DNA from: Yarrowia lipolytica
Taxonomy: Eukaryota; Ascomycota; Dipodascomycetes; Dipodascales
Assembly: GCF_001761485.1 (NCBI RefSeq)
Contig: NC_090774.1
Coordinates: 4,134,535-4,198,534, forward strand
Length of the DNA stretch: 64,000 nucleotides
Direction of reading: 5' to 3'
Shown piece by piece: positions 2,692 through 64,000 of this stretch (positions are counted from its first letter, which is position 1; each line of letters opens with the position of its first letter). The position numbers and the translations under genes were made by a program. The notes under the pieces are model-generated. The model was not told where the DNA came from, did not search any database, and was given only the letters and a program-made list of their open reading frames with translations.

Positions 2692-3381
2692 ATGCAGATC
2701 CTTTAGGAGCATCTAAAATATTAAAAGAGGGGGTGGACTGAAATACATACGAAAATTTGAAATCTCGATTTGATTGAAATACGAAAGCTGTCTGTAGTGA
2801 GACTGTAGTATGCTGTGTTATTATGTGTACATGTGACACGGGGTACCAGAGCTACAGTAGTACAGCCCAAGACATAATAAATGGAATGAATTATATTGAA
2901 GAATAAATAAATACTGTAGTAGATGAATTGAAGGTACATACGAGAAGGCGGTATCCCGCAACTGTGGTGTCATGTCGTAATGTGGTGGTTATATCGTGTT
3001 TGGTCACGTGCTCCTGCTGTGAGCCAAATACAGTATACAGTAAGTAGTATGTGATAGGGGGTCATTCAGGGTCTCATCACTTAGACAAGGCAATGGAAAT
3101 GCTCACCATGGGAACCAACCCCGTACATTCGGTGTCTGGCCACGTGACTGCTCCAACACCGCCGTAGTTGAGGATGTTTGGGTGCAGTTTTGTGGTGCTG
3201 AGGCATCATAGCTAACGATAGCTACGAGTAGGCCATAAAGCTGCCAGTGTCACCCGAAATAATAATATCCAGGGTCTGTTTCTGACCTTCTTATTTCTGG
3301 CCTGCTTATCTCTGACATGTCTCTTCATCCCTTCTCTGGACTGCTTGGCCGTGCCTTGCAGTAGTCTCCAGTGGTGTCACG
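2692..3381. other. Intergenic between RPS27 and a minus-strand reading frame
   Basis: AT-rich 3' flank of RPS27. CACGTG hexamers occur near 3005 and 3141. No coding signal was seen on either strand. Confidence 0.5.
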
Positions 3382-28229: not shown

Positions 28230-28236
28230 TTAGTCA

Positions 28237-28364
28237 ACCTCCTCAACAGTGGGACCCTCGCCGCCACCAGGAGCGGCTCCAGAACCAGGCATACCTCCTC
28301 ACCTCCTCAACAGTGGGACCCTCGCCGCCACCAGGGGCGGCTCCAGCTCCAGGCATGCCTCCTC
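28237..28364 (-). repeat. 64-bp imperfect tandem duplication at the HSP70 3' end
   Basis: Bases 28237-28300 and 28301-28364 are the same 64-bp unit with four mismatches. On the minus strand each encodes the Gly/Pro-rich tail plus GPTVEEV. Because 64 is not a multiple of three, the two copies lie in different reading frames. Confidence 0.95.
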
Positions 28365-30225
28365 CGGGCATTCCACCGGGAGCACCACCGTCAGCTCCGT
28401 AGAACTTCATAAGGATGGGGTTCGCAATACCCTCGAGCTCCTTCTGCTTATCGGAGTACTCTTCAGTAGCACCGGACTGAGTAGCATCGAGGAACTCAAT
28501 GGTCTCGTTGATGGCCTTCTCAAGCTTCTCACGCTCGGCCTCGTCAACCTTCTCCTTGAACTTCTCCTCGGAGAGAGTGTTCTTGAGAGAGTAGGTGTAA
28601 GACTCGAGGCCGTTCTTGGCGGCAATTCGGGCAGCCTCCTTCTCGTCCTCGTCCTTGTACTTCTCAGCGTCGTTCACCATTCGCTCAATTTCCTCCTTGG
28701 AAAGTCGGCCCTTGTCGTTGGTGATAGTGATTTGCTGAGTCTTACCAGTACCCTTCTCAACAGCGGAGACGTTGAGAATACCGTTGGCATCAACGTCAAA
28801 GGTGACTTCGATCTGAGGAACACCACGAGGAGCGGGGGGAATACCGGACAGCTCAAACTTACCAAGGATGTTGTTATCCTTGGTCTGAGCTCGCTCACCC
28901 TCAAAGACCTGAATCAGAACGCCAGGCTGGTTGTCAGCGTAGGTGGAGAAGGTCTCAGACTTCTTGGTGGGGATAGTCGAGTTTCGGGGGATGAGCTTGG
29001 TCATAACACCGCCAGCAGTCTCGATTCCAAGAGAAAGGGGAGCAACGTCAAGGAGCAGAATATCCTGAGTGGAAGAGGAAGTGTCACCAGAAAGGATGGC
29101 AGCCTGGACGGCAGCACCGTAGGCAACAGCCTCATCAGGGTTGATAGATCGATTCAGCTCTTTTCCGTTGAAGAAGTCAGAAACGAGCTTCTGCACCTTG
29201 GGGATTCGAGTGGAGCCACCAACAAGGACAATCTCGTTGACTGAGGCCTTGTCCATCTTAGCGTCCTTCAGGACCTTCTCAACTGGCTCAAGAGTGCCTC
29301 GGAAGAGATCCTGACAGAGTTCCTCGAATCGGGCTCGAGTGATGGAGGTGTAGAAATCAATACCCTCGTAGAGAGAGTCGATCTCAATGGATGTCTGAGC
29401 GGAAGACGAAAGGGTTCGCTTAGCTCGCTCACAAGCGGTTCGCAGTCGTCGGAGAGCTCGCTGGTTGGTGGAGATGTCCTTCTTGTGCTTTCGCTTGAAC
29501 TCCTGAACAAAGTGGTTCACGAGTCGGTTGTCAAAGTCCTCACCACCGAGATGGGTATCTCCAGCGGTGGCCTTGACCTCAAAGATGCCGTCTTCGATAG
29601 ACAGAAGAGAAACATCAAAAGTTCCTCCTCCAAGATCGAAAATGAGCACGTTTCGCTCGCCAGTCTCCTTCTTATCGAGACCGTAGGCAATGGCGGCAGC
29701 GGTAGGCTCGTTGATAATTCTCTGAACATTCAGACCAGCAATAAGACCTGCGTCCTTGGTGGCCTGTCGCTGAGAATCATTGAAGTATGCGGGAACGGTA
29801 ATGACAGCGTCGTTCACCTTTGTTCCGAGGTATCCCTCAGCAGTTTCTTTCATCTTGGTGAGGATCATGGAAGAGATCTCTTCGGGGGTGAAGACCTTGG
29901 TTTCGCCCTTGAATTCGACCTCGATGTTGGGCTTTCCAGCCTTGTCGATAATCTTGAAGGGGAAGTGCTTGGCGTCATTCTGGACCTCAGGGTCGTCGAA
30001 TTTTCGGCCAATCAGTCGCTTGGCGTCAAAGACTGTGTTTGCAGGGTTCATGGCAGCCTGGTTCTTGGCAGCATCACCAATGAGTCGTTCAGTGTCGGTA
30101 AAGGCCACAAACGAGGGAGTGGTTCTGTTTCCCTGGTCATTGGCGATGATTTCGACTCTGTCATTGGCGAAATGGGCCACACAGGAGTATGTGGTTCCAA
30201 GATCGATTCCTACTGCTTTAGACAT
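28243..30225 (-). CDS. SSA: Cytosolic HSP70 chaperone of the SSA type, with frameshifted C-terminus (660 aa)
   Basis: ATP-driven chaperone. The start is taken at 30225 ([19 protein letters not shown]), the normal SSA start; an ATG 66 bp upstream adds residues foreign to the family. Seen in order: phosphate loop [62 protein letters not shown], then the substrate-binding domain ([15 protein letters not shown]-type block), the helical lid and a Gly/Met/Pro tail. The tail reaches GPTVEEV at residue 642, where Asp and stop are expected, but runs into 18 unrelated residues ([18 protein letters not shown]) because of the 64-bp duplication. A normal EEVD and TAA remain in another frame at 28230-28241. 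Heat-shock elements lie upstream. Confidence 0.93.
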
Positions 30226-30393
30226 GTTGTTGTAATGTGTTTCTTTCGTTTTCTTTTGTGTTTGTGATGGCCTATTTTCTGTGGCAGACACCCCGACTTT
30301 TAATAGTGTCCACGGTTCGTGATCTTTCTCGAAGGTGAGGGAATGTGGGATAAGAGATAATATGGAACCTTAACTTTATCTGTAGAACAACCT

Positions 30394-53445: not shown

Positions 53446-54819
53446 TTAGAGAAGAAGAGCACCGATGGCACCAACAAGAGCAGCTCCAGAAAGAGTAATG
53501 AGGGTGGCTCCATTGGTGTTCTTGGAGGGAACAACGCTGGGAGAGGTGTGGTTGAGGTCAGGGTTAGCGACGCCAGCGCCGGAAGTAGCGGACGCAGTGG
53601 AGTTAGGGTAGGCGACAGTAGAGTTCTTCTCAGCAGCCTTGCCCCAGATCTCGGCGATCTTGGGCAGAATCTTGTTACCGGAAATACCAACGGCAGTCAG
53701 GTCAGGGACCGGGATAGGGACGGTGTCGTCCATAAAGTAACCAGGCTGAGAGGCGTTATGGTACAAACCCTCAGTGGAAATGTTTCGGTTCTTGATGTTG
53801 AGCTCATCGGCGACAAACTTGAAGACGTTGGCATTAACATCGCCACGTCCAAGATGGGGGAGCTCCCAATTGGCCTCGACGGTGGCGAGGTTGGAGTAGT
53901 GGTCGTAGAATGTATCGTCAGTGGTACCTCGCAGATGGTCGGGGACGGCACCACCAAGAAGAATAGCGAGGACCGAGTTCTGGTCCTTGTAGGTCTCGTT
54001 CTCATCGAACGTGATGATGATGAGACTGTCCTTGGCGAACTCGGTGTTGTTGAGCAGAGGCTTGACCCAGTTGGTAACGTACCGACCCGAAACAGAAATA
54101 TCGGTATCGTGACCATCGTTGGTCATGTTGGGGGTGAAGAAGGCCCATTGGGGAAGATCCTTGTTCTTTAGGTCCTTGTTGAACTCAGTGTAGTTCTTGA
54201 TGTAACCGAGGTTGTGAGGGTTGGACACAACGGAGTCGTAGATAATGAGAGGGTTGTGCTTTCGGACGTAATCGTTGGCGTAATCGGACTGTCGAGAGTA
54301 ATTGAAACCCTCGAAGCCGGCATGGGGCTGGTGTTCTTGGTACTCGGCCCAAGAGATGTTCTTGGAGTCGAGCAGATCGACAACAGTGGACACATTCTCA
54401 GGGATTCGGAGGAAGGCATCATCAAAGATACCAAAGTAGTCACCACCGACAACACCAACATAGTTGGGCTCAGAGGGGTGAGTGAGACCCCAGTAGTTGG
54501 TCAGAGTGATACCCTGCTTCTGGAGCTCAACGAGACCGGGCTCGTCCCGAGCCTTCCACTTGTCAGTGTTCTCGAGCCACACCTGGTAGAACTTATCAAA
54601 GGCCTTACCCTTAACGAGAGGCTTGTCCTTGAAGGAGTTGACAGCGGCAGTCTCGGCAGCCTTGGCGATATCAGTGGCAGCAGGATTGATGGTGGAGAAC
54701 TTGGGTGTTCGGGTGGCCTTGGAAACAATCTCATCGTAGGCGCTGAAGTCGTTATGGGCGGTGGTCTGGGCAGACACACCAGCGACAATGGCCAGGAGGG
54801 TGATAGGTGCAAAGAGCAT
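53446..54819 (-). CDS. Secreted, probably GPI-anchored acid phosphatase (phosphoesterase family), 457 aa
   Basis: Member of the fungal phosphate-repressible acid phosphatase group in the broad phosphoesterase family (PF04185). It has a signal peptide (MLFAPITLLAIVAGVSA); LTNYWGLTHPSEPNYVGVVG, the family's HPSxPNY block; EYQEHQPHAGFEGFNYSRQ; NPHNLGYIKNYTEF; SLIIITFDENETYKDQN, with the acidic metal-binding DEN; and many N-glycosylation sequons (NVS, NYS, NYT, NMT, NNT, NRNIS, NAS, NST). The end is a Ser/Asn-rich stalk and a hydrophobic tail (GAALVGAIGALLL), which suggests GPI attachment to membrane or wall. A TATATAAA box and a CACGTG lie within 100 bp upstream. It releases phosphate from outside substrates. 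Confidence 0.88.
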   Translation of the reverse strand: MLFAPITLLAIVAGVSAQTTAHNDFSAYDEIVSKATRTPKFSTINPAATDIAKAAETAAVNSFKDKPLVKGKAFDKFYQVWLENTDKWKARDEPGLVELQKQGITLTNYWGLTHPSEPNYVGVVGGDYFGIFDDAFLRIPENVSTVVDLLDSKNISWAEYQEHQPHAGFEGFNYSRQSDYANDYVRKHNPLIIYDSVVSNPHNLGYIKNYTEFNKDLKNKDLPQWAFFTPNMTNDGHDTDISVSGRYVTNWVKPLLNNTEFAKDSLIIITFDENETYKDQNSVLAILLGGAVPDHLRGTTDDTFYDHYSNLATVEANWELPHLGRGDVNANVFKFVADELNIKNRNISTEGLYHNASQPGYFMDDTVPIPVPDLTAVGISGNKILPKIAEIWGKAAEKNSTVAYPNSTASATSGAGVANPDLNHTSPSVVPSKNTNGATLITLSGAALVGAIGALLL

Positions 54820-54863
54820 AGCGAGTGTAGTTGTTGCTTGAACTCCGGAAACCGGACACTGTG

Positions 54864-54875
54864 GAGTTTATATAC
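54864..54875 (-). promoter_or_regulatory. TATA box of the phosphatase gene
   Basis: TATATAAAC on the minus strand, about 50 bp before the ATG at 54819. Confidence 0.6.
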
Positions 54876-54910
54876 ATGCTGAAGGGACGGCAATTTCGCG
54901 AGTCACGTAC

Positions 54911-54916
54911 CACGTG
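54911..54916. promoter_or_regulatory. CACGTG element upstream of the phosphatase gene
   Basis: Perfect palindrome about 95 bp before the ATG and just upstream of the TATA box, with a half site (CACGTA) five bases away. A Pho4-like site here would fit phosphate repression; Cbf1 binding is the alternative. Confidence 0.55.
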
Positions 54917-57189
54917 TTTCAAGAACTATCTGTGGATCTCGTCATTACGATCTGGGTTCGGAGAGTTTTGGTTATTGAATCTTATTACTTGGGGGTTATT
55001 TACATTCACCCTCATTGGTCGAGAAGAGTTCGGAGGTAAACCAAGGTAGAAGTGGGTGCGTTCGTAGCGGCTATCGGAACTGCTCCATAAAAGTGCAATA
55101 AATATTACTTTCAAGGTATGATAATCACCTGGAGCCGAGTGCTCGCTTGTCCCCCAATGTGAGTCCTTGTCATTTAATTACATAAAAGATGTCGCCAAGA
55201 GGCGTCACTTGCGTCGTGTGGAGGTCGAAGTTAACCTTGAAAAAGCTTGGCCTACTTAGTGTTCATTTCCTTTTGGGAGGTCATGGTTAGGTTGGGACCT
55301 TTGATTGGTTCTAATGGAGATAAGCATTCGATGTGAGACAAGATATGCGCCCCGGTGAAGCCGCCAGCCACGGAAGATCGGGAAATTTTAGGACAACGTT
55401 GGCCGAAACAAGCCGTATAAGACGAGCGGCACACATGAGAGTTTGTAGCTGTTGGGACCCAAACCTGTACGATGTAGAAAGCTACTTGTAGCTACTGCAC
55501 AAGACTACATCTGCAGGTCTTCTCCTCAAAACCTCAGTCGAAATGGCTGCTGCTTCGAACTACGGTACATACTGTACAGTGTACTTTATAGTATCAAGTA
55601 CAAAATGGAAGCATTTAAACAGCAATTATATACAATAAGAGAGAGCTGGTGAACAATGCTACAAACAGAATGGATAGTACTGGTCGTAATCGTAGTTTAC
55701 AGCATGTACTGTAGTATAAGAGGTGTATTAACCAACCATCGATACAGTAGTGGAAAGTAAAACTATTTCTCGAAGGAGAAACATCTCACTGTGATATCTG
55801 CGTGCATTGAAACTCATATGGAAGGATATGTACTCGTTCTTACAGTATGTGTACTCGTAGGTACCGTGGGGCTACAAGAAGCTTGTTTTGGGGTTCCTAT
55901 CTATGCCAAAGATGGTTGTGAACGTATCCCCCATCGACTGTGACTCGGGGTTAACATTAGTAACAGGAGTTCTTGAAGCCAGAGTCGCTGACCGAGTTGT
56001 AAAGCTCAGAGTCATGACTTCTATTTAGATCAGGGAGAAGCTAAGGGTACATGACGGTTTGATAAGGGGGCTCCCACACTTGAATCAATCGGCGTTTTTC
56101 CATTATCCTGTTGCACAAGTTCACATATAGGTCATCCGTTCCAGCCTCCTCATCATGCATGCATTCTGAATACCCCAAGGGAAAAAGACGGCTATCTGGG
56201 AGCTAAGAAGACAGTTTGTTGCACAGATGTTGCCACATCCTTCCAGTCGGAACATGTATCTTCCGAAATCAAGATTTAGGTGGCTTCGGTATCATGGAAT
56301 ATTCTCCGCTATTCTTCTCTGTCAATTTTTCTTGCCCAGGAGGGCTGGTGCATAATTAAAGGTTTTATGATATGTAAGGGGGGATGGCATCTTTGGGGTC
56401 TACGAAGTAGCAGGGAAACTGACATGGGACTGTTTAGAAGAATGAAATCATAATTTTACCACTAAAGTATGCCATCATTGCAGCATTTGTTTCAAAATAT
56501 CTCTACCATCACATTCTGGAGCTTTCCATCTGATTCTGACGACTTCTTCCTCCTGCACCCTAAAGAATGGTCGGCATATTGCATGCATCAACGATGCACA
56601 TTTTTTCGCCACTGACCAACCTCTTCGAACCTAAACAGCCTCGGCAAGGAATATATAAACCCCCTCTACGTCCCTCTTTTTCAATCAGAATCAGACCAGT
56701 TCACTCTGAGTCATTCTGGAGATGGAAGGTGCCTTTTATAGCCTGCTGAGATGCAGAGCTGATAAGCAGACCTGTCTCATACAACGAGGACCGCTTCGCT
56801 AGTCATGTCCGTTGAGTTGTTTGGGCAATGACGCGTTTACCGCATGAGCCCTTTTCGGTCAAGAGACTCTCGCTATGACGCATTGAAAAAGATGTATGAG
56901 CCTGAGAATGTGCGACAGCTTCTGATTGGGCGTTTGAGCTGAGATTTGGTTCTCGGCGAGTTCAACACAGAGGCGAGTACGACCGCCTGCGCCAAGTGTC
57001 AGTAAGTCCGTGACTGTGCGTCCGGTTGACCGCCATGAGCTGAAAATGCCATGAGCCAAGAGCGAGTTTGGCCGGCTGAAATGCCTGAGCCTACTCCGTG
57101 TCTTGTGAGTTCTTGAGGACCACATGTGCAGCCGCCAGAGCAAAGAGCCAGACAGTGAAACATCTGCAGAGCCACCGACAGAGATTATC

Positions 57190-57290
57190 AAGGGTGAAAC
57201 TCCTTTCGAGACTCCTTTCCCACAGGTGAAATTCCTGTTTACTCACAGGGTGAAACTCCTTTGTGAAGTCTCATAGGGTGAAATTCCTGT
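57190..57290 (+). repeat. Degenerate GGTGAAAyTCCT repeat, four copies
   Basis: AGGGTGAAACTCCTTTC, AGGTGAAATTCCTGTTT, AGGGTGAAACTCCTTTG and AGGGTGAAATTCCTGTAT follow each other at irregular spacing of about 30-45 bp. Confidence 0.75.
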
Positions 57291-57309
57291 ATGAGAAGCC
57301 GCCTAGAAT

Positions 57310-57820
57310 CTGAAGAGCCAAGCTGAAATGCCAGAGCTGCCAGTTGTAGAGCAAAGATCTGGACAGACGCCATACATGGTCAAAAGAGCAAGCCAGAGCC
57401 AGAGCTATAAGCCAGAGCCAGTGCGACATGAGCCAGAGCTGATACGCCAGATACCACAGAGTCAGAGCGATAGCCAGAGCCACAGATGCCTGAGTGTGAG
57501 CCATAAGTCCAAAGAGCAAGAGCCACACAGGTCAGAGCCAGCGCTGAAATGCCAGAGCCAGAACCCATGCCACGAGCAAAGAGCCAGTAAGCCCTTCAAG
57601 GCAATAAGTGCCAAACGCCGTGAGAGCAACGTCAATGCCACTAAGTCCAGAGAGCAATAAGAGCCATTTCGCCTGAGCAAGAGCCAGTGAGTCCACAGAT
57701 GCAATAAGCGCCAAACGCCAGAGCACAGACAGAGCCGAAGGAGCCAGGGCCATAGAGCCGAGGCCAGCCAGTTGCCAATAAGTCCAAAGAGCAATGAGAG
57801 CCTGAGCACGAGCCAAGTCA
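57310..57820 (+). repeat. Degenerate GAGCCA-type short repeat, about 500 bp
   Basis: At least fourteen GAGCCA hexamers, together with many GCCAGA, CCAGAGC, AGAGCAA and GCCATAAGTCCAAAGAGC variants, fill this stretch. Frames on both strands are open because of the repeat, giving runs rich in Gln/Ser/Glu/Pro on the plus strand and Leu/Ala/Trp on the minus strand, so they are not evidence of genes. Confidence 0.8.
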
Positions 57821-58137
57821 CACTATTCAAGGAATAGGCGGTGAACCTCTTAGCCAGAGGACGTAACTGACCGAACCTGTTTATCTAGTTTTGAGAGGAG
57901 TAGGTGAAAATCCGAACCTCTTGGGTTAATAAATCATGGACCAAAGAGTCCCCCCGAATATTTGAGTTGTAGAGAGTTGAACAGTATTTGTAGTTGTAGA
58001 AGCTATTTTTTGTAGAGAACCATTGCTGAACCGCCTTGATCTCGTGATTATTCACCTTGTTGGAGTTGGAGAATGGTGTTATAGCCAGTACACAGTTGCA
58101 CGTACACAGCGGAGAGGCCAAGTATTAGTAACGTTGA

Positions 58138-58612
58138 GGAAACTTAGCCTCGACAAATATCCGTGACTCCCTTTGGCAGAGAACAGGTGAGCAGACTGAT
58201 CCCACGGAAGACTTCCTGTGCTATGGGAATGCTCTTATGGGCTTCGAGCACGACACCATTGGCCTCATGTTCATATATCCCCCTTAGAAGACCCCTGTGG
58301 CGCTCCCCAAGCAAGACGGCACAATATCGCTAATCATATTGTGCCAGGTGGTACGAAAGACTCCTAGAAAGAGGTCATGAAACAGCTACCGTTATGAACA
58401 GATGGAGGTGGCGATAGACAAAGATATACCTTTCGTTGAAGAATACGCCCACTTCGAATAGTCTTGGTCTCGCGATCACGGTCGGTGCAGTCTCAGCTGT
58501 CAGCTCCGACTCCACAGGTTTTGTCGGTCCCTCTGAAATTCACGGTAGATCCGAGTCCCCCGAATCGACTGATGACTTCTCTCCTGGCTCCGACATGGAC
58601 GGTGAAGAGTAG
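58138..58612 (+). pseudogene. Decayed coding segment 1 of the + strand relic field
   Basis: One frame from 58138 to 58461 reads as protein with only two internal stops (TAG 58285, TGA 58378): NIRDSLWQRTGEQTDPTEDF, LCYGNALMGFEHDTIGLMFI, PVALPKQDGTISL, then EQMEVAIDKDIPFVEEYAHF. A second frame, from 58457 to a TAG at 58610, gives an acidic Ser-rich tail (SESPESTDDFSPGSDMDGEE). The codons look like those of ordinary genes. No family recognised. Confidence 0.45.
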
Positions 58613-58830
58613 TTCTACAAGTAGCCTGACGGACTTCGTAGGCTTGCCATCAGCACCTCTCTTTTCCGCAGGTACATCTGGTGCTGTCACTTGTCGTAAT
58701 CCCATATCTTAGATCGTAGAAACTATTTTATGGCCCATTATGAGCTATACCTGTTCCTAGTCAGGCAAATAAGTAATCATCAAAGTTATACGTGACTTCT
58801 AAAAACTACTGATTATATTGTAGATGACGT

Positions 58831-58986
58831 TGCAATCCAGAAGGTACATGGGTTGACTACTCTGTGCTTCAACACCAATTCTTCGACTTATACATTGATG
58901 AAGCCCCCGTAAACCACGAAGTAGAGTCAGTTGAACTCTTCATGCCATATGGAATACGCTCTTACGACCATCTTGAGAACCACTAG
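58831..58986 (+). pseudogene. Decayed coding segment 2
   Basis: Open for 51 codons without a start codon, ending at TAG 58984-58986: CNPEGTWVDYSVLQHQFFDL, YIDEAPVNHEVESVELFMPY, GIRSYDHLENH. The composition is that of a globular protein. Family unknown. Confidence 0.45.
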
Positions 58987-59382
58987 AGCACGCCTGAGAA
59001 TGTCTTGATATCTGTTATAATCTTATATTGAAGCAAGGTCGTTGAAAGCATCCCCTTTATTATCTGCACCTCCTAACAGCTTGGTTGAATGGAGGTGGGG
59101 GACCGGTGGAGGAATTAATGTACACGAGTCGCAGCCCTCGATCTATTCGGTTAGTATACAAGTAGAAGTGCTTTATTTTAACAATCGGATGGGTTCACTA
59201 CAATCTGTTCATCATGAAGTACCAACCCCACAGTCACCAACCAGGAACCGTTCAACATTCTGACTGTGACCCATTACACCAGGATGTCAACAGGAAAAGG
59301 ATGTTATCGATTAATAACCCCTTAAAATTCGCACAGAGCCTTTAGAAAAGCCTTTGTACTCCCATTACTTCATATTCTCGCT

Positions 59383-59714
59383 GTGAGATCAATACATTCT
59401 CGATGTTCATTGGTGAGTCCGCCATCCTCGGCAATCTCTGGTGGAGGCTATTGCGGTGATATTGCGCCTGTCCAAGTCCTTGTTTATCAAGAATCTGACA
59501 TTTCCGGATCACCAGGTCGTCCAGACTTGACTCTAGATATGTACTCATACAAGGCAGGTTCACTCTGCCTCGATTACTGCTGCACCTTCCCGATCTGTTC
59601 CACGGTGTCTAAATAAGTAGCATTGACCATCATGCCACAGTAAACGAAGCTCGATTCATTGCAATCATCCAATGGCCTAAGACACCTACCGCCAGATTCC
59701 CGAGAATCAAGTGA
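59383..59714 (+). pseudogene. Decayed coding segment 3 (two frames)
   Basis: The first frame (59383-59616) includes YCGDIAPVQVLVYQESDIS and LTLDMYSYKAGSLCLDYC. A second frame (59613-59714) adds SIDHHATVNEARFIAIIQWP, and a third continues SSDTVGRLVYTGQNES to a stop near 59756. Frames follow one another in the same direction, as expected of a frameshifted gene. Confidence 0.35.
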
Positions 59715-59910
59715 TACTGTGGGCCGCCTCGTATACACAGGGCAGAATGAGTCATGAAAAGCGTCGACGGGTGCGATGGGAAGGCCCAACTTTAAACCAT
59801 TATTCATCGCGCGTCAGTAGTCGATCCCCATACGTCAGGTTGACAGATGTCTGGTGGAGCTGAAACATGTCAAACGTCATTGTAAGTTTTAGCACCTGAC
59901 GGTATTTTGT

Positions 59911-60123
59911 TTGCGTCTGGCTTGCTCTCGCCCCAGTGGATCGTGTATGCCAGATATCCTCGCCAAACATCCTTGCTTATTGCCTCAACACATGAGAATT
60001 CTAACATATATGGGCTCAGGCAACCTCCTGCCAGATTTTACCGAGGCATATCCTTCCAGAAGACCCTATCATCAATCATGGCGGCATAAAGCCTCTGGAT
60101 TGTACTGTCTAACCTCGCTGTAG
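59911..60123 (+). pseudogene. Decayed coding segment 4
   Basis: A 70-codon frame with DILAKHPCLLPQHMRILTYM and GSGNLLPDFTEAYPSRRPYH. It lies in line with the other + strand segments. Family unknown. Confidence 0.35.
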
Positions 60124-60161
60124 AAGACTCGACGAGCTATGACAAATGTTATTTTCGGTGA

Positions 60162-60452
60162 CTAAAGAGCAATGAAGATCAGCAGGTCTTATCGGACGAG
60201 GTGGCGTCTATGGTGTCGGCGACCCGTCGGAGTTCCGCTCAGCACTGTCACCGAGAGAAACGGCTGAACGAAGTGGTTGGTGCTGGGCGAGAACAAGAAG
60301 CAGTTGAGCTACAGTAGTTGCTGGGTCAGCTTGGACCGGATGGCTCACTGCGGAGGAGGATAGATATTCTACCTTCATGTGAATTGCCTAAGAGCAAGCC
60401 GTCACATATGTCCCATAGTGTAAAAAGACAAGAAGGATGTGTGAGCATCTGA
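60162..60452 (+). pseudogene. Decayed coding segment 5 (one internal TAG)
   Basis: A 96-codon frame broken only by TAG at 60315. It gives NEDQQVLSDEVASMVSATRR, HCHREKRLNEVVGAGREQEA and, after the stop, LLGQLGPDGSLRRRIDIL. The helical, charged composition is not random. Family unknown. Confidence 0.45.
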
Positions 60453-60637
60453 CAAGCCCGCTGTCCACAAGATCAAAGGGGATAAGTTCCATAGAGATGA
60501 GTAGGAAGCCAATTTCTATTGCAAAATGTACATGAGCCGTCAGAGAATAGCAAAAGCCGATATATGCATTCGCTATATAGTAGAAACTCAAGCCTTTCGC
60601 TTACTTTCGTAAAAGTGTCAATGTCCAACATTCCAAG

Positions 60638-60871
60638 GTGTCTAAACTGAGTCCTGCAGTTCATTGTCAGTCATTTGAATGCTTTGACAAGACAGTTGCT
60701 GAAATAAAGCTGAAGTCCCCTTCTCTGTTGTGTCATGAGCAGGAAGAGTTCTTCCAAGCTGGGCAGCCCTTCAAGCCAGATATACTGCTTCCTGACCAAC
60801 CAGAGTCAAGAAAAATGAGCGAGGGGGGTCAAAGGACAGTTCCAGGAGCTCGGGACAAGTCTGAATGGTAA
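60638..60871 (+). pseudogene. Decayed coding segment 6
   Basis: A 77-codon frame with SFECFDKTVAEIKLKSPSLL and HEQEEFFQAGQPFKPDILLP. Codon use is gene-like. Same strand as the other relics. Family unknown. Confidence 0.4.
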
Positions 60872-61451
60872 CCCAAAGCGTCTATTATGTTTTCATGACT
60901 GAATGTATCTCTTCATGCTGTGATCTGTCGTAAATAACTTTTCTCGATAAAAAGTTGAAATGTGACGGCTTGAAAGAAGGAGTGTATAGAGCATAGACCT
61001 GGTCGTGGGGTGTGAAACTTGTTGACAGTGTTATACCATGCCTACCATGGTGTCTAGACCATTTTAATTGTAGTCAAAGCCTTGCTCTGAGGTCTTGGAA
61101 GGTGTTTTATTCACTTTACAGTTTCAGGGCTGAGCTAAATTCATACGATAAGATCACTTTACCGTTTCTCATGTTGAAGTAATGGAGGTGTGACTTGAGA
61201 TATGGATCTTGAACCAATTCAAAAGTCTTACTTCCACTGCCAATTCAAAGTCAAAAGGCCTCGGCTGTTGTATTATTGAATACCACGATTAATATCTTGT
61301 CCCTATCGTGTTTCCTCAGTCAATATTGATGAGGAGTTGAGATGATTAATGGTGAAGGCGTTGCTAGGGAATAGAGCGCTGGAGAATCAGCACAGAAGGC
61401 TCGTGAGACTTTTGAACTGGCGATTGACGTCTAAGTTGATTTAATTGTGAT

Positions 61452-61685
61452 ATGATTCATTTTCATACCACCTCGCATTCTGAGAAGTATTGGGAAAGAT
61501 GCGAAAAGATAATGGAGCGGTATACTGACCCCGGGATGGATATTAAACCGTTCTCTCTGAAATACAACCACTCTACCACCTTTACTGATGTGTCTGATGA
61601 TTTATACTGCTATATCAAACAAGGGATTGCTTCCATTCCATTATCAGATGTCCATTTACCCTGTTTACACTGTACATTGTCCTAG
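61452..61685 (+). pseudogene. Decayed coding segment 7
   Basis: A 77-codon frame with SEKYWERCEKIMERYTDPGM, DIKPFSLKYNHSTTFTDVSD and DLYCYIKQGIASIPLSDVHL. A short gene-like piece (ESAQKARETFELAIDV) lies just upstream near 61385-61432. Family unknown. Confidence 0.4.
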
Positions 61686-62341
61686 AAGCATCACATGTAT
61701 TGCACTCGATATATGTAAAGAATTTAGCTGGTGCATTTTATATAATCATTCATTCATGTTAGTCTCACAAAATCCCAAGTAACAGCCCACTAATGTAATG
61801 GCGCCTACCTGCAGAAGGACGGGAGAATCCAGGGCACTACCATGGTCGAAGAACGGCAACCAGATCCATGGCACACGGCCATGACTTGTACACGTATGTG
61901 TTCTATCCTGCCACGATCCCTTAAAACAGGTGCCTAAAACATTATATGGAGAAGTTCCATCATCCCAAAGGTTGTCACCTCGAATATCACTGTACAGATG
62001 GTACTAGAAAATGGTAAAGCAGAACAGCGGCAGTGGTGAAAAAGCTTCAAAGTCTAACAGACACTCGACGAGGACAGCGTATAGACCGAGGTGTTCTGGG
62101 TTGTCAGGTGATACAAGTGCTATTCACAGGGGCTACCACGTGGGTAACTCGTTGACTGCCTGAATAAGCATAGCGACGGTCTACAGGTAGCCGACTGTAG
62201 ATAGCCAGGTGATTTTCCTGAGAACCAGCTGATGGAAGACCATGCCTCGGACCGAGACTTTGAGGGAGCCGCGATGGAGATCCGTGCCCGACGTATAAAT
62301 GAATGGGGAGTGTCATGAGCGGAGGACTGTAACTCGTCTCG

Positions 62342-62418
62342 AACTTCCGAATGGGGAGAGCCTTGGTGAATCCTGAATTGGACCGGAAGGACTCTTCCCC
62401 AACTTCCGAATGGGGAGA
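62342..62418. repeat. 18-bp direct repeat, 59 bp apart
   Basis: AACTTCCGAATGGGGAGA occurs at 62342-62359 and 62401-62418 without mismatch. A related TGAATGGGGAG is about 40 bp upstream. Confidence 0.85.
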
Positions 62419-63808
62419 ACGTTGCCCTGACGATTCTCTGACAAGGGATTGTCTCGCGCGACCTCGAGGGGACGGACTAATGGTAGTAAGAATGGGGGTG
62501 GTTGTACCGCAGTATGATCATCTCTATCTCACTAAGATTAGTCTGAGTGGGGATCCTGCCAAGTGGTGGGACCATCTTGTCTTGACGACACAAGGTGGTA
62601 GGGAGTCCATGGGGGAGGGTCAGAGACCCAGCTCAGGTGGGCCAAGGCCTACCAGGGTTGGAGTGCTGGCCATTGGCACCCTTGATGGGTGGTCTCGAGA
62701 AGAGAAGAGCTTAGTAATGTTTTTGTTGTTTTTTCGCCAAGTTTTCCCTGGCGAGGTTGCGGGGGCTGGGTGAGAGAGAGGGATGAGAGAGATGGATAAG
62801 AGATAAATGAGGGAAAAAGAGATAAATGGAGAGAAGTTGGAGGTGAAAAACGTGGCGTGCATGGATAATGCGGGTTAAAGTTGTGGCTGCAGTGCTAAAA
62901 TTGTCAAAGTGTCTAGAGTAGGATGTGGTAAAAATGTCAAAGTAGTGTGTTTAGTCAGCATTTCAGTTCCTAAGTAAGAATATCTAACGGCAGTTGTTAT
63001 TTGTCTGTAGGGAAGGAATAAGGCTCACTGTCTTCAACAATATATATGGGTTGATAGTTGATCTTTTAGAGGGGGAGGTTCCTTATAGCAGAAGTAATGG
63101 CGCATTAACTTTGACACGGCAATGAAGTCCATATCAAGACAAGACTTGGAAAATCATGTGAGAAACAATATAAGGCCTTTGATTGGTCCCCCTTTACGTC
63201 CATGACCGCGAAAAGTTGCCAATCTGGTTCAAATCGCTTTACTCCATTGTCTTGCTATACGATCGTATAAGGAGAGATATGAAAGTCTAATCCATGGTAG
63301 AAGAGTGAGTATAGCAACAGAATAGAGCAGTAGAATGACAGATGGATAGTATTGGGGTTTAATGGAATGATTCTGGTCTCAGGGATACCCTAACCCTGTT
63401 CTATTAATAGCAAATGGATCGTTTATGCGTTCTTGAGCTCGACAGACGGTAAGGGGTACATGCATGGCTTGAAATGGAGATGGAGTAAGATGAGAGGGAA
63501 GAGATGATGAACTTGATCGATGAGGAAACACCAGGAGTTGTGATTATACACTGACATTGAAATAGTCTGTGGAGATTCGAATGCCTACAAGAGAGATGGG
63601 GATGTCTATGATCTTTCCATTCACATGCCAGTCGGGTGAGTATGCGTTTTCATTATTCCCTATCAAGTGTTCTCTGATACACACGTGCTTGAATTTACGG
63701 GGTTATCTCCTATCAATTGTGCTCTGATATAGACATCCGCTCGGATGGTAACTCACATACTGCTTCGGCATATGGACGTTGACGCGGTACATCTGCTCAG
63801 GAATCAGC

Positions 63809-63835
63809 TCAATACTAAAGTCCAATACTAAAGTC
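63809..63835. repeat. Short tandem duplication CAATACTAAAGTC
   Basis: CAATACTAAAGTC is repeated once almost directly (two copies, 13 bp each). A looser 25-bp direct repeat (TATCAAGTGTTCTCTGATAC against TATCAATTGTGCTCTGATAT) lies at about 63661 and 63710. Confidence 0.7.
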
Positions 63836-64000
63836 GCCTACCATGGATTTACTCCCACTCCTAGTTCACATGGTGTTTGCTGCTGTCTGATCAGGCAATG
63901 CAGCGAAGCTACCATCCGCTGGATTATGGCTGAACGCTCTCAGTCAGAACCATGCTAGAAGTGATGAATTAGGGGGTAGGATGGATATGAATACTATCGC

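What the first reader, a model, noticed from the sequence alone, without database searches (positions are those of the whole stretch)
28230..28364. HSP70 (SSA) gene has lost its EEVD end through a 64-bp tandem duplication that looks paralog-derived
The reading frame passes GPTVEEV at residue 642 and then, instead of Asp-stop, runs into 18 foreign residues. The downstream copy still encodes GPTVEEVD and TAA, one frame over. The two 64-bp copies differ at four bases. Read in the EEVD frame, three of the four changes are synonymous and one gives Ala/Ser, so the downstream copy appears to have evolved as a correct HSP70 tail. That suggests a recombination join with the tail of another SSA gene, not a simple slippage. 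EEVD binds TPR co-chaperones such as Sti1 and Hsp40 partners, so this paralog may be uncoupled from them. A sequencing or assembly error of one or two bases is the main rival explanation.
Basis: partly seen in the sequence, partly recalled or inferred. Interest (0 to 1): 0.72.

Follow-up and report, generated by a model that had tools for sequence, protein, structure and literature searches.

The report
Assembly seam mimicking HSP70 tail loss
A yeast heat-shock chaperone gene appears to have lost its conserved C-terminal EEVD tag, but the break lies exactly at the edge of a stretch that stands identically on four chromosome arms of the reference assembly, so it is most likely a stitching error and not biology.

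Summary
The 64-bp imperfect tandem duplication is present (window 28237-28364, 4 mismatches), and the minus-strand SSA-type HSP70 frame ends EEV + 18 foreign residues. All six contig lengths equal those of the Yarrowia lipolytica W29/CLIB89 assembly; place and relatives fit SSA6. The duplication is the edge of something larger. A 2,011-bp block (28301-30311), from 86 bp before the ATG to ...GAGGAGGT, is letter-identical at four loci. At or within a few bases of that 3' edge, 3 of 4 loci carry different frame lesions (+64 bp, +T, +C); only the chromosome A copy ends cleanly in EEVD. One 5' edge also carries an imperfect duplication. The assembly stitched Velvet contigs with error-prone PacBio joins and placed repeated contigs. 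Two chromosome ends show this: identical 3,662-bp and 1,767-bp stretches around a join with 54 gap events. Published identities of Ssa6p match a normal-ended protein, not the 660-residue one, if gaps are counted. Verdict: the loss of EEVD is most likely an assembly artefact. The subtelomeric SSA loci are probably real; whether their 100% identity is real cannot be decided here. No reads were examined.

The parts
28243..30225 (-). SSA-type cytosolic HSP70 ORF as it stands in the assembly (660 aa; by place and relatives SSA6 / YALI0E35046g)
   Evidence: Pfam PF00012 HSP70, 868.9 bits; locus name from PMC2721632 passages; identity pattern
28301..30311 (-). 2,011-bp block, letter-identical at the left end of C5 (L002), the right end of C4 (L003) and the right end of C1 (L004); runs from 86 bp upstream of the ATG to ...GTTGAGGAGGT
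28301..28364 (-). inner copy of the 64-bp unit: last 64 bp of the repeated block ([21 protein letters not shown])
28237..28300 (-). outer copy of the 64-bp unit: this locus's own SSA tail ([22 protein letters not shown] with the bases that follow), joined bluntly to the block end and so out of frame
28230..28236 (-). rest of the resident tail: TGACTAA, completing EEVD-stop in the resident frame
28246..28299 (-). 18 out-of-frame codons [18 protein letters not shown], a by-product of the join (stop TGA at 28245-28243)

Best explanation
The finding is an assembly seam. The genome has several real SSA-type HSP70 loci near chromosome ends, with related but diverged flanks. The short-read assembler gave one contig for their shared coding part, and that contig was placed at four loci. 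At the right arm of chromosome E its last base (...GAGGAGGT) was joined bluntly to a flank piece that still held the last 64 bp of the resident gene, so 64 bp appear twice and the frame slips by one. At two other loci the same edge was joined with one surplus base. In the cell SSA6 most likely ends in EEVD-stop like its relatives and binds TPR co-chaperones in the usual way. Shown: the block, its edges, the lesions, the published assembly method, an error-rich join elsewhere. Inferred: that the block is one reused contig, and that the native gene ends normally.
For: (1) All six contig lengths and the total equal Table 3 of the CLIB89 paper. (2) Its methods: Velvet contigs, PacBio scaffolding, a step for repeated contigs, junction consensus with an estimated 8% error before Illumina correction. 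(3) A 2,011-bp block identical at 4 of 4 loci with sharp edges at the same bases (L002 shares one further base), while flanks differ, save that the A and D 5' flanks are identical. (4) Lesions at or within a few bases of the same 3' edge at 3 of 4 loci, three different kinds: +64, +1 T, +1 C. (5) The same type of imperfect duplication at the 5' edge of L002: 36 resident bases against the block's first 38, with 3 mismatches and 2 gaps. (6) The resident piece kept in the window differs from the block at 4 of 64 bases with no gaps, so the placed block is not the native sequence there. (7) Chromosome A and D right ends share 3,662 bp identical, then 483/521 bp with 54 gap events and 8 mismatches, then 1,767 bp identical to the last base. 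(8) Gap-inclusive identities of the 660-aa form to SSA5/7/8 are 91.6/92.8/90.2; published Ssa6p is 94/95/92; forms of 642-643 aa give 94.0-94.2/95.2-95.4/92.6-92.8; the method reproduces three control pairs.
Against: No reads were examined. The paper says the joins were corrected with Illumina reads, at very deep coverage, and the two 64-bp copies differ by no indel. The published Ssa6p values presumably come from the earlier reference, not W29, and Table 1 does not state how gaps were counted; with gaps left out the test does not separate the forms. Homogenised, mostly subtelomeric SSA copies are known in two sister species, so the block identity itself could be real.
Confidence: 0.93

Rival explanations
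1. Real gene conversion: a donor SSA coding region overwrote three other SSA loci, and faulty ends of the conversion tracts broke the EEVD end in three of the four.
For: Identical coding block with diverged flanks; concerted evolution of SSA copies, 4 of 6 of them subtelomeric, in Y. yakushimensis and C. galli, and conversion tracts matching coding regions in SSB1/SSB2 of other yeasts (PMC3879978 passages).
Against: Homology-directed conversion ends seamlessly; here the joins are blunt, the window keeps both copies of an octamer (GAGGAGGT twice in a row), and surplus bases stand at one fixed place in three loci. The same edges recur at all four loci. PMC3879978 found signs of concerted SSA evolution in only those two species, so none in Y. 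lipolytica. Published Ssa6p fits a normal end.
Confidence: 0.04
2. Sub-case of the best explanation: conversion or recent duplication truly made the four coding regions identical or nearly so, but the broken ends alone are stitching errors.
For: As above for homogenisation; the 3' edge is where the four loci diverge, which is where a graph contig of a truly identical repeat would end.
Against: The resident piece kept in the window differs from the block at 4 of 64 bases, and that at the L002 5' edge by 3 mismatches and 2 gaps, though gaps there may be read errors; so at least the ends of some native copies are not identical.
Confidence: 0.35
3. A simple tandem duplication by slippage or unequal crossing-over within one SSA gene, in the living strain.
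For: Exact 64-bp unit, head to tail.
Against: Copies differ at 4 of 64 bases, the inner one equal to the block end at three other loci and the outer one, with its tail, found at 100% only here; both copies of the bordering octamer are kept; the position coincides with the block edge.
Confidence: 0.02

Closest known systems
Y. lipolytica SSA6 (YALI0E35046g; PMC2721632)
   Same: Chromosome E gene; the block's gap-inclusive identities to SSA5, SSA7, SSA8 (94.0, 95.2, 92.6) agree with the published 94, 95, 92.
   Different: The window frame runs 18 residues past EEV; the published identities fit a protein without that tail.
Repeated contigs placed several times in a hybrid short-read/long-read assembly
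   Same: Identical block at several loci, sharp common edges, duplicated or surplus bases at the joins; the CLIB89 method describes placement of repeated contigs.
   Different: Contig coordinates of the original assembly were not available, so the edges could not be matched to a listed contig.
Concerted evolution of fungal SSA and SSB genes (PMC3879978)
   Same: Coding regions more alike than flanks, subtelomeric SSA copies.
   Different: No broken ends are described in the passages and section that I saw; here the ends are broken at one common place.

Membership tests
Cytosolic HSP70, SSA subfamily | HSP70 ATPase and substrate-binding regions | tested here: met
   PF00012 over residues 4-609, 868.9 bits; best PDB match 7kw7_C, Heat shock 70 kDa protein 1A, over residues 3-641
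Cytosolic HSP70, SSA subfamily | High identity to other Y. lipolytica SSA proteins | tested here: met
   94.0, 95.2 and 92.6% (gaps counted) to the SSA5, SSA7 and SSA8 genes of the same genome, for the block's 642 residues; those names rest on chromosome and identity pattern
Cytosolic HSP70, SSA subfamily | C-terminal EEVD | tested here: inconclusive
   Absent from the frame as assembled, present in another frame in the resident tail; the lesion lies at a suspected assembly join. L005, L006, L007 and the chromosome A copy L004 end EEVD-stop
Assembly artefact (reused repeat contig with faulty join) | Identical block with the same edges at several loci whose flanks differ | tested here: met
   4 of 4 loci; the 5' flanks of two of them (A and D) are identical, the 3' flanks all differ
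Assembly artefact (reused repeat contig with faulty join) | Errors concentrated at the block edges | tested here: met
   3 of 4 loci at the 3' edge, 1 of 4 at the 5' edge
Assembly artefact (reused repeat contig with faulty join) | Raw reads contradict the assembled join | not testable with these tools
   no reads available
Gene-conversion tract | Seamless ends in homologous sequence | tested here: not met
   surplus or duplicated bases at 3 of 4 loci; the chromosome A copy is seamless

The most novel reading that the evidence does not exclude
In W29 one SSA coding block really has spread to four chromosome arms by end-joining and not by homology, leaving three of four copies of a heat-inducible HSP70 with altered C-termini (EEV-stop, EEVD plus ten residues, EEV plus 18 residues), that is, a strain-specific set of chaperones uncoupled from EEVD-reading co-chaperones.
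Probability: 0.04. Interest if true: 0.6.

Novelty: not a real feature. Interest (0 to 1): 0.08.

Why it matters
It does not reveal new chaperone biology. Its use is practical: W29/CLIB89 is the RefSeq assembly for an industrial yeast (PMC12888388 passage), and the sequence and ends of up to four SSA genes in it should not be trusted for primer design, expression, proteomics or evolutionary work until re-read.

Tried and rejected
Tandem duplication in place by slippage or unequal crossing-over: rejected because the inner copy equals the block end at three other loci while the outer copy belongs to this locus, and because both copies of the bordering octamer are kept. The exact 28-base tail searched occurs once, but that count leans on the lesions at the other loci, so one search is the fairer test.

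A one- or two-base sequencing error as the whole cause: insufficient for the window, since 64 bp are duplicated with four differences; the fault is in the join. It would do for L002 and L003.

Retrocopy or transposon: considered by eye only; the block starts upstream of a TATA-like stretch and ends before the stop codon, and no poly(A) was seen at the joins.

A de Bruijn overlap of k-1 = 64 (k = 65) as the source of the 64 bp was considered; the value of k was not in the sections that I read, and the four mismatches do not fit a plain untrimmed overlap, so it is left as a guess.

Papers searched for a report of this break: (capped listings). In the rows listed and in what I opened (PMC5014426 outline, sections 48, 10, 12 and part 1 of 2 of section 5; PMC2721632 passages and section 5; PMC3879978 passages and section 15; PMC10670989 and PMC12888388 passages) I saw no mention of it.

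Full report
What is there. The minus-strand ORF at 28243-30225 is an SSA-type HSP70 (PF00012, 868.9 bits; PDB matches). Its frame passes GPTVEEV and then runs through 18 residues to a stop. Two 64-bp units lie head to tail at 28237-28364, with four differences, three synonymous and one Ala/Ser in the SSA phase; the outer one continues into D and TAA in another frame.

Where it is. The search of the window's own genome placed the window at the last 64 kb of contig C5. The six contig lengths, 2,257,857, 3,044,971, 3,366,276, 3,629,463, 4,198,534 and 4,002,965, and the total of 20,500,066, are those given for the six CLIB89 (W29) chromosomes of Yarrowia lipolytica in Table 3 of PMC5014426. The gene sits 36 kb from the right end of chromosome E. 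By place and by identity to its relatives it is SSA6, YALI0E35046g (PMC2721632).

The wider anatomy. Of 9 matches to the gene's 3' part in the genome, three besides the locus itself are 100% identical over all 600 bases up to the duplication. The HSP70 profile finds 14 places in the genome, four of them with the same score of 869 bits. Extended, the identity covers 2,011 bp, window 28301-30311, from 86 bp before the ATG to ...GTTGAGGAGGT, at the left end of chromosome E (L002), the right end of D (L003) and the right end of A (L004). Outside it the four 3' flanks are related but diverged, and so are the 5' flanks, except that those of A and D are identical.

Lesions at the edge. After the common ...GAGGAGGT, the window has the 64-bp repeat, L002 has TTGACTAA (one T too many, EEV-stop), L003 has CGACCTAA (one C too many, EEVD then LMDSHPHFCI), and L004 has TGATTAA (clean EEVD-stop). 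So 3 of 4 loci carry different frame lesions at or within a few bases of one fixed point. At the 5' edge L002 also holds an imperfect duplication: 36 resident bases that align with the block's own first 38, with 3 mismatches and 2 gaps. The other three SSA genes, at C4 (L005, L007) and C6 (L006), end EEVD-stop. In the 194 kb scanned, 2 arrays of this kind (period 30-200, at least 88% matches) exist, one of them this one, so a coincidence with the block edge is unlikely.

How the assembly was made. The methods section read describes Velvet contigs of Illumina reads, scaffolding with PacBio reads, a step for finding the mates of repeated contigs, and junction sequences from alignments of PacBio reads with an estimated 8% error before correction with Illumina reads. 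A block present once as a contig and placed four times, with faults at its ends, is what this could give. Two arms show the process directly: the right ends of A and D share 3,662 identical bases (the block and 1,651 bp upstream), then a 483/521-bp stretch with 54 gap events, 37 of one base, and 8 mismatches, then 1,767 identical bases to the very last base of both contigs. In the A copy the open stretch that reaches into this join carries an eIF3_p135 match. The left end of D matches the same terminal stretch down to its base 3,178 (98.9-99.1%; the outermost 1,767-1,776 bases identical), which is just where the paper says 3,177 bp of CLIB122 were added. So three contig ends stopped at the same base. 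[quoted passage not shown] this agrees with the loci being real and does not speak to their letters.

An independent check. Published identities of Ssa6p to Ssa5p, Ssa7p and Ssa8p are 94, 95 and 92%. Counting gaps, the 660-aa form in the window gives 91.6, 92.8 and 90.2; forms ending EEV or EEVD (L002, L004) give 94.0-94.2, 95.2-95.4 and 92.6-92.8; L003 with its ten extra residues gives 92.8, 93.9 and 91.4; three control pairs give 95.4, 93.6 and 92.0 against published 95, 93 and 92. If gaps are left out, the 660-aa form is not separated from the others (95.5, 96.0 and 93.5) and the control pairs come out at 96.1, 94.1 and 92.4, two of them too high, so the gap-inclusive reading is the one that fits. 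The published protein therefore most likely has a normal length. It presumably comes from the earlier reference, not from W29.

What remains open. Whether the four coding regions are truly identical is not settled. Two sister species show concerted evolution of SSA genes, 4 of the 6 genes concerned being subtelomeric, but the same paper found such signs in no other species (PMC3879978). It also describes a subtelomeric SSA copy that arose before Y. lipolytica split from these two. The resident piece kept in the window differs from the block at 4 of 64 bases, which favours collapse of diverged copies; the one at L002 differs too, though its gaps may be read errors. Either way, the broken end is best read as a faulty join.

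Mechanism in the cell. From general knowledge, EEVD at the end of cytosolic HSP70 binds TPR co-chaperones and some J-proteins. SSA6 is reported as heat-inducible, about 4-5 fold at 42 C (PMC2721632). Nothing here supports an SSA6 uncoupled from those partners. The weak growth support by Ssa6p in S. cerevisiae (306 min per division) is a property of the cloned gene, whose published identities fit a normal end.

Verdict. No reads were examined.

Noticed in passing
L015 7751-8233 (C1 right end) and L013 7713-8233 (C4 right end): Error-rich join of 483/521 bp between stretches identical on both chromosomes; in the A copy the open stretch entering it has an eIF3_p135 match, so gene models there are unreliable.
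   Followed up: partly
window 53594-64000: According to the CLIB89 paper, CLIB122 sequence was appended to chromosome E from position 4,188,128, so about the last 10.4 kb of the window would be from another strain.
   Followed up: no
L008 1501-1965 (C5:3487813-3488277): An SSA-like fragment, 82% identical to part of the gene; the HSP70 profile match there is partial (445-548 of 599) with 2 TGA stops inside, so it looks like a relic.
   Followed up: no
L021 7344-7459 (C6 right end): Another two-copy tandem duplication, 58-bp unit, 98% matches, in a repeat-rich chromosome end.
   Followed up: no
window 56024-64000: Subtelomeric repeat family of several kb shared with the left ends of C3, C4 and C6 and the right end of C6 at about 88-99% identity.
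   Followed up: no
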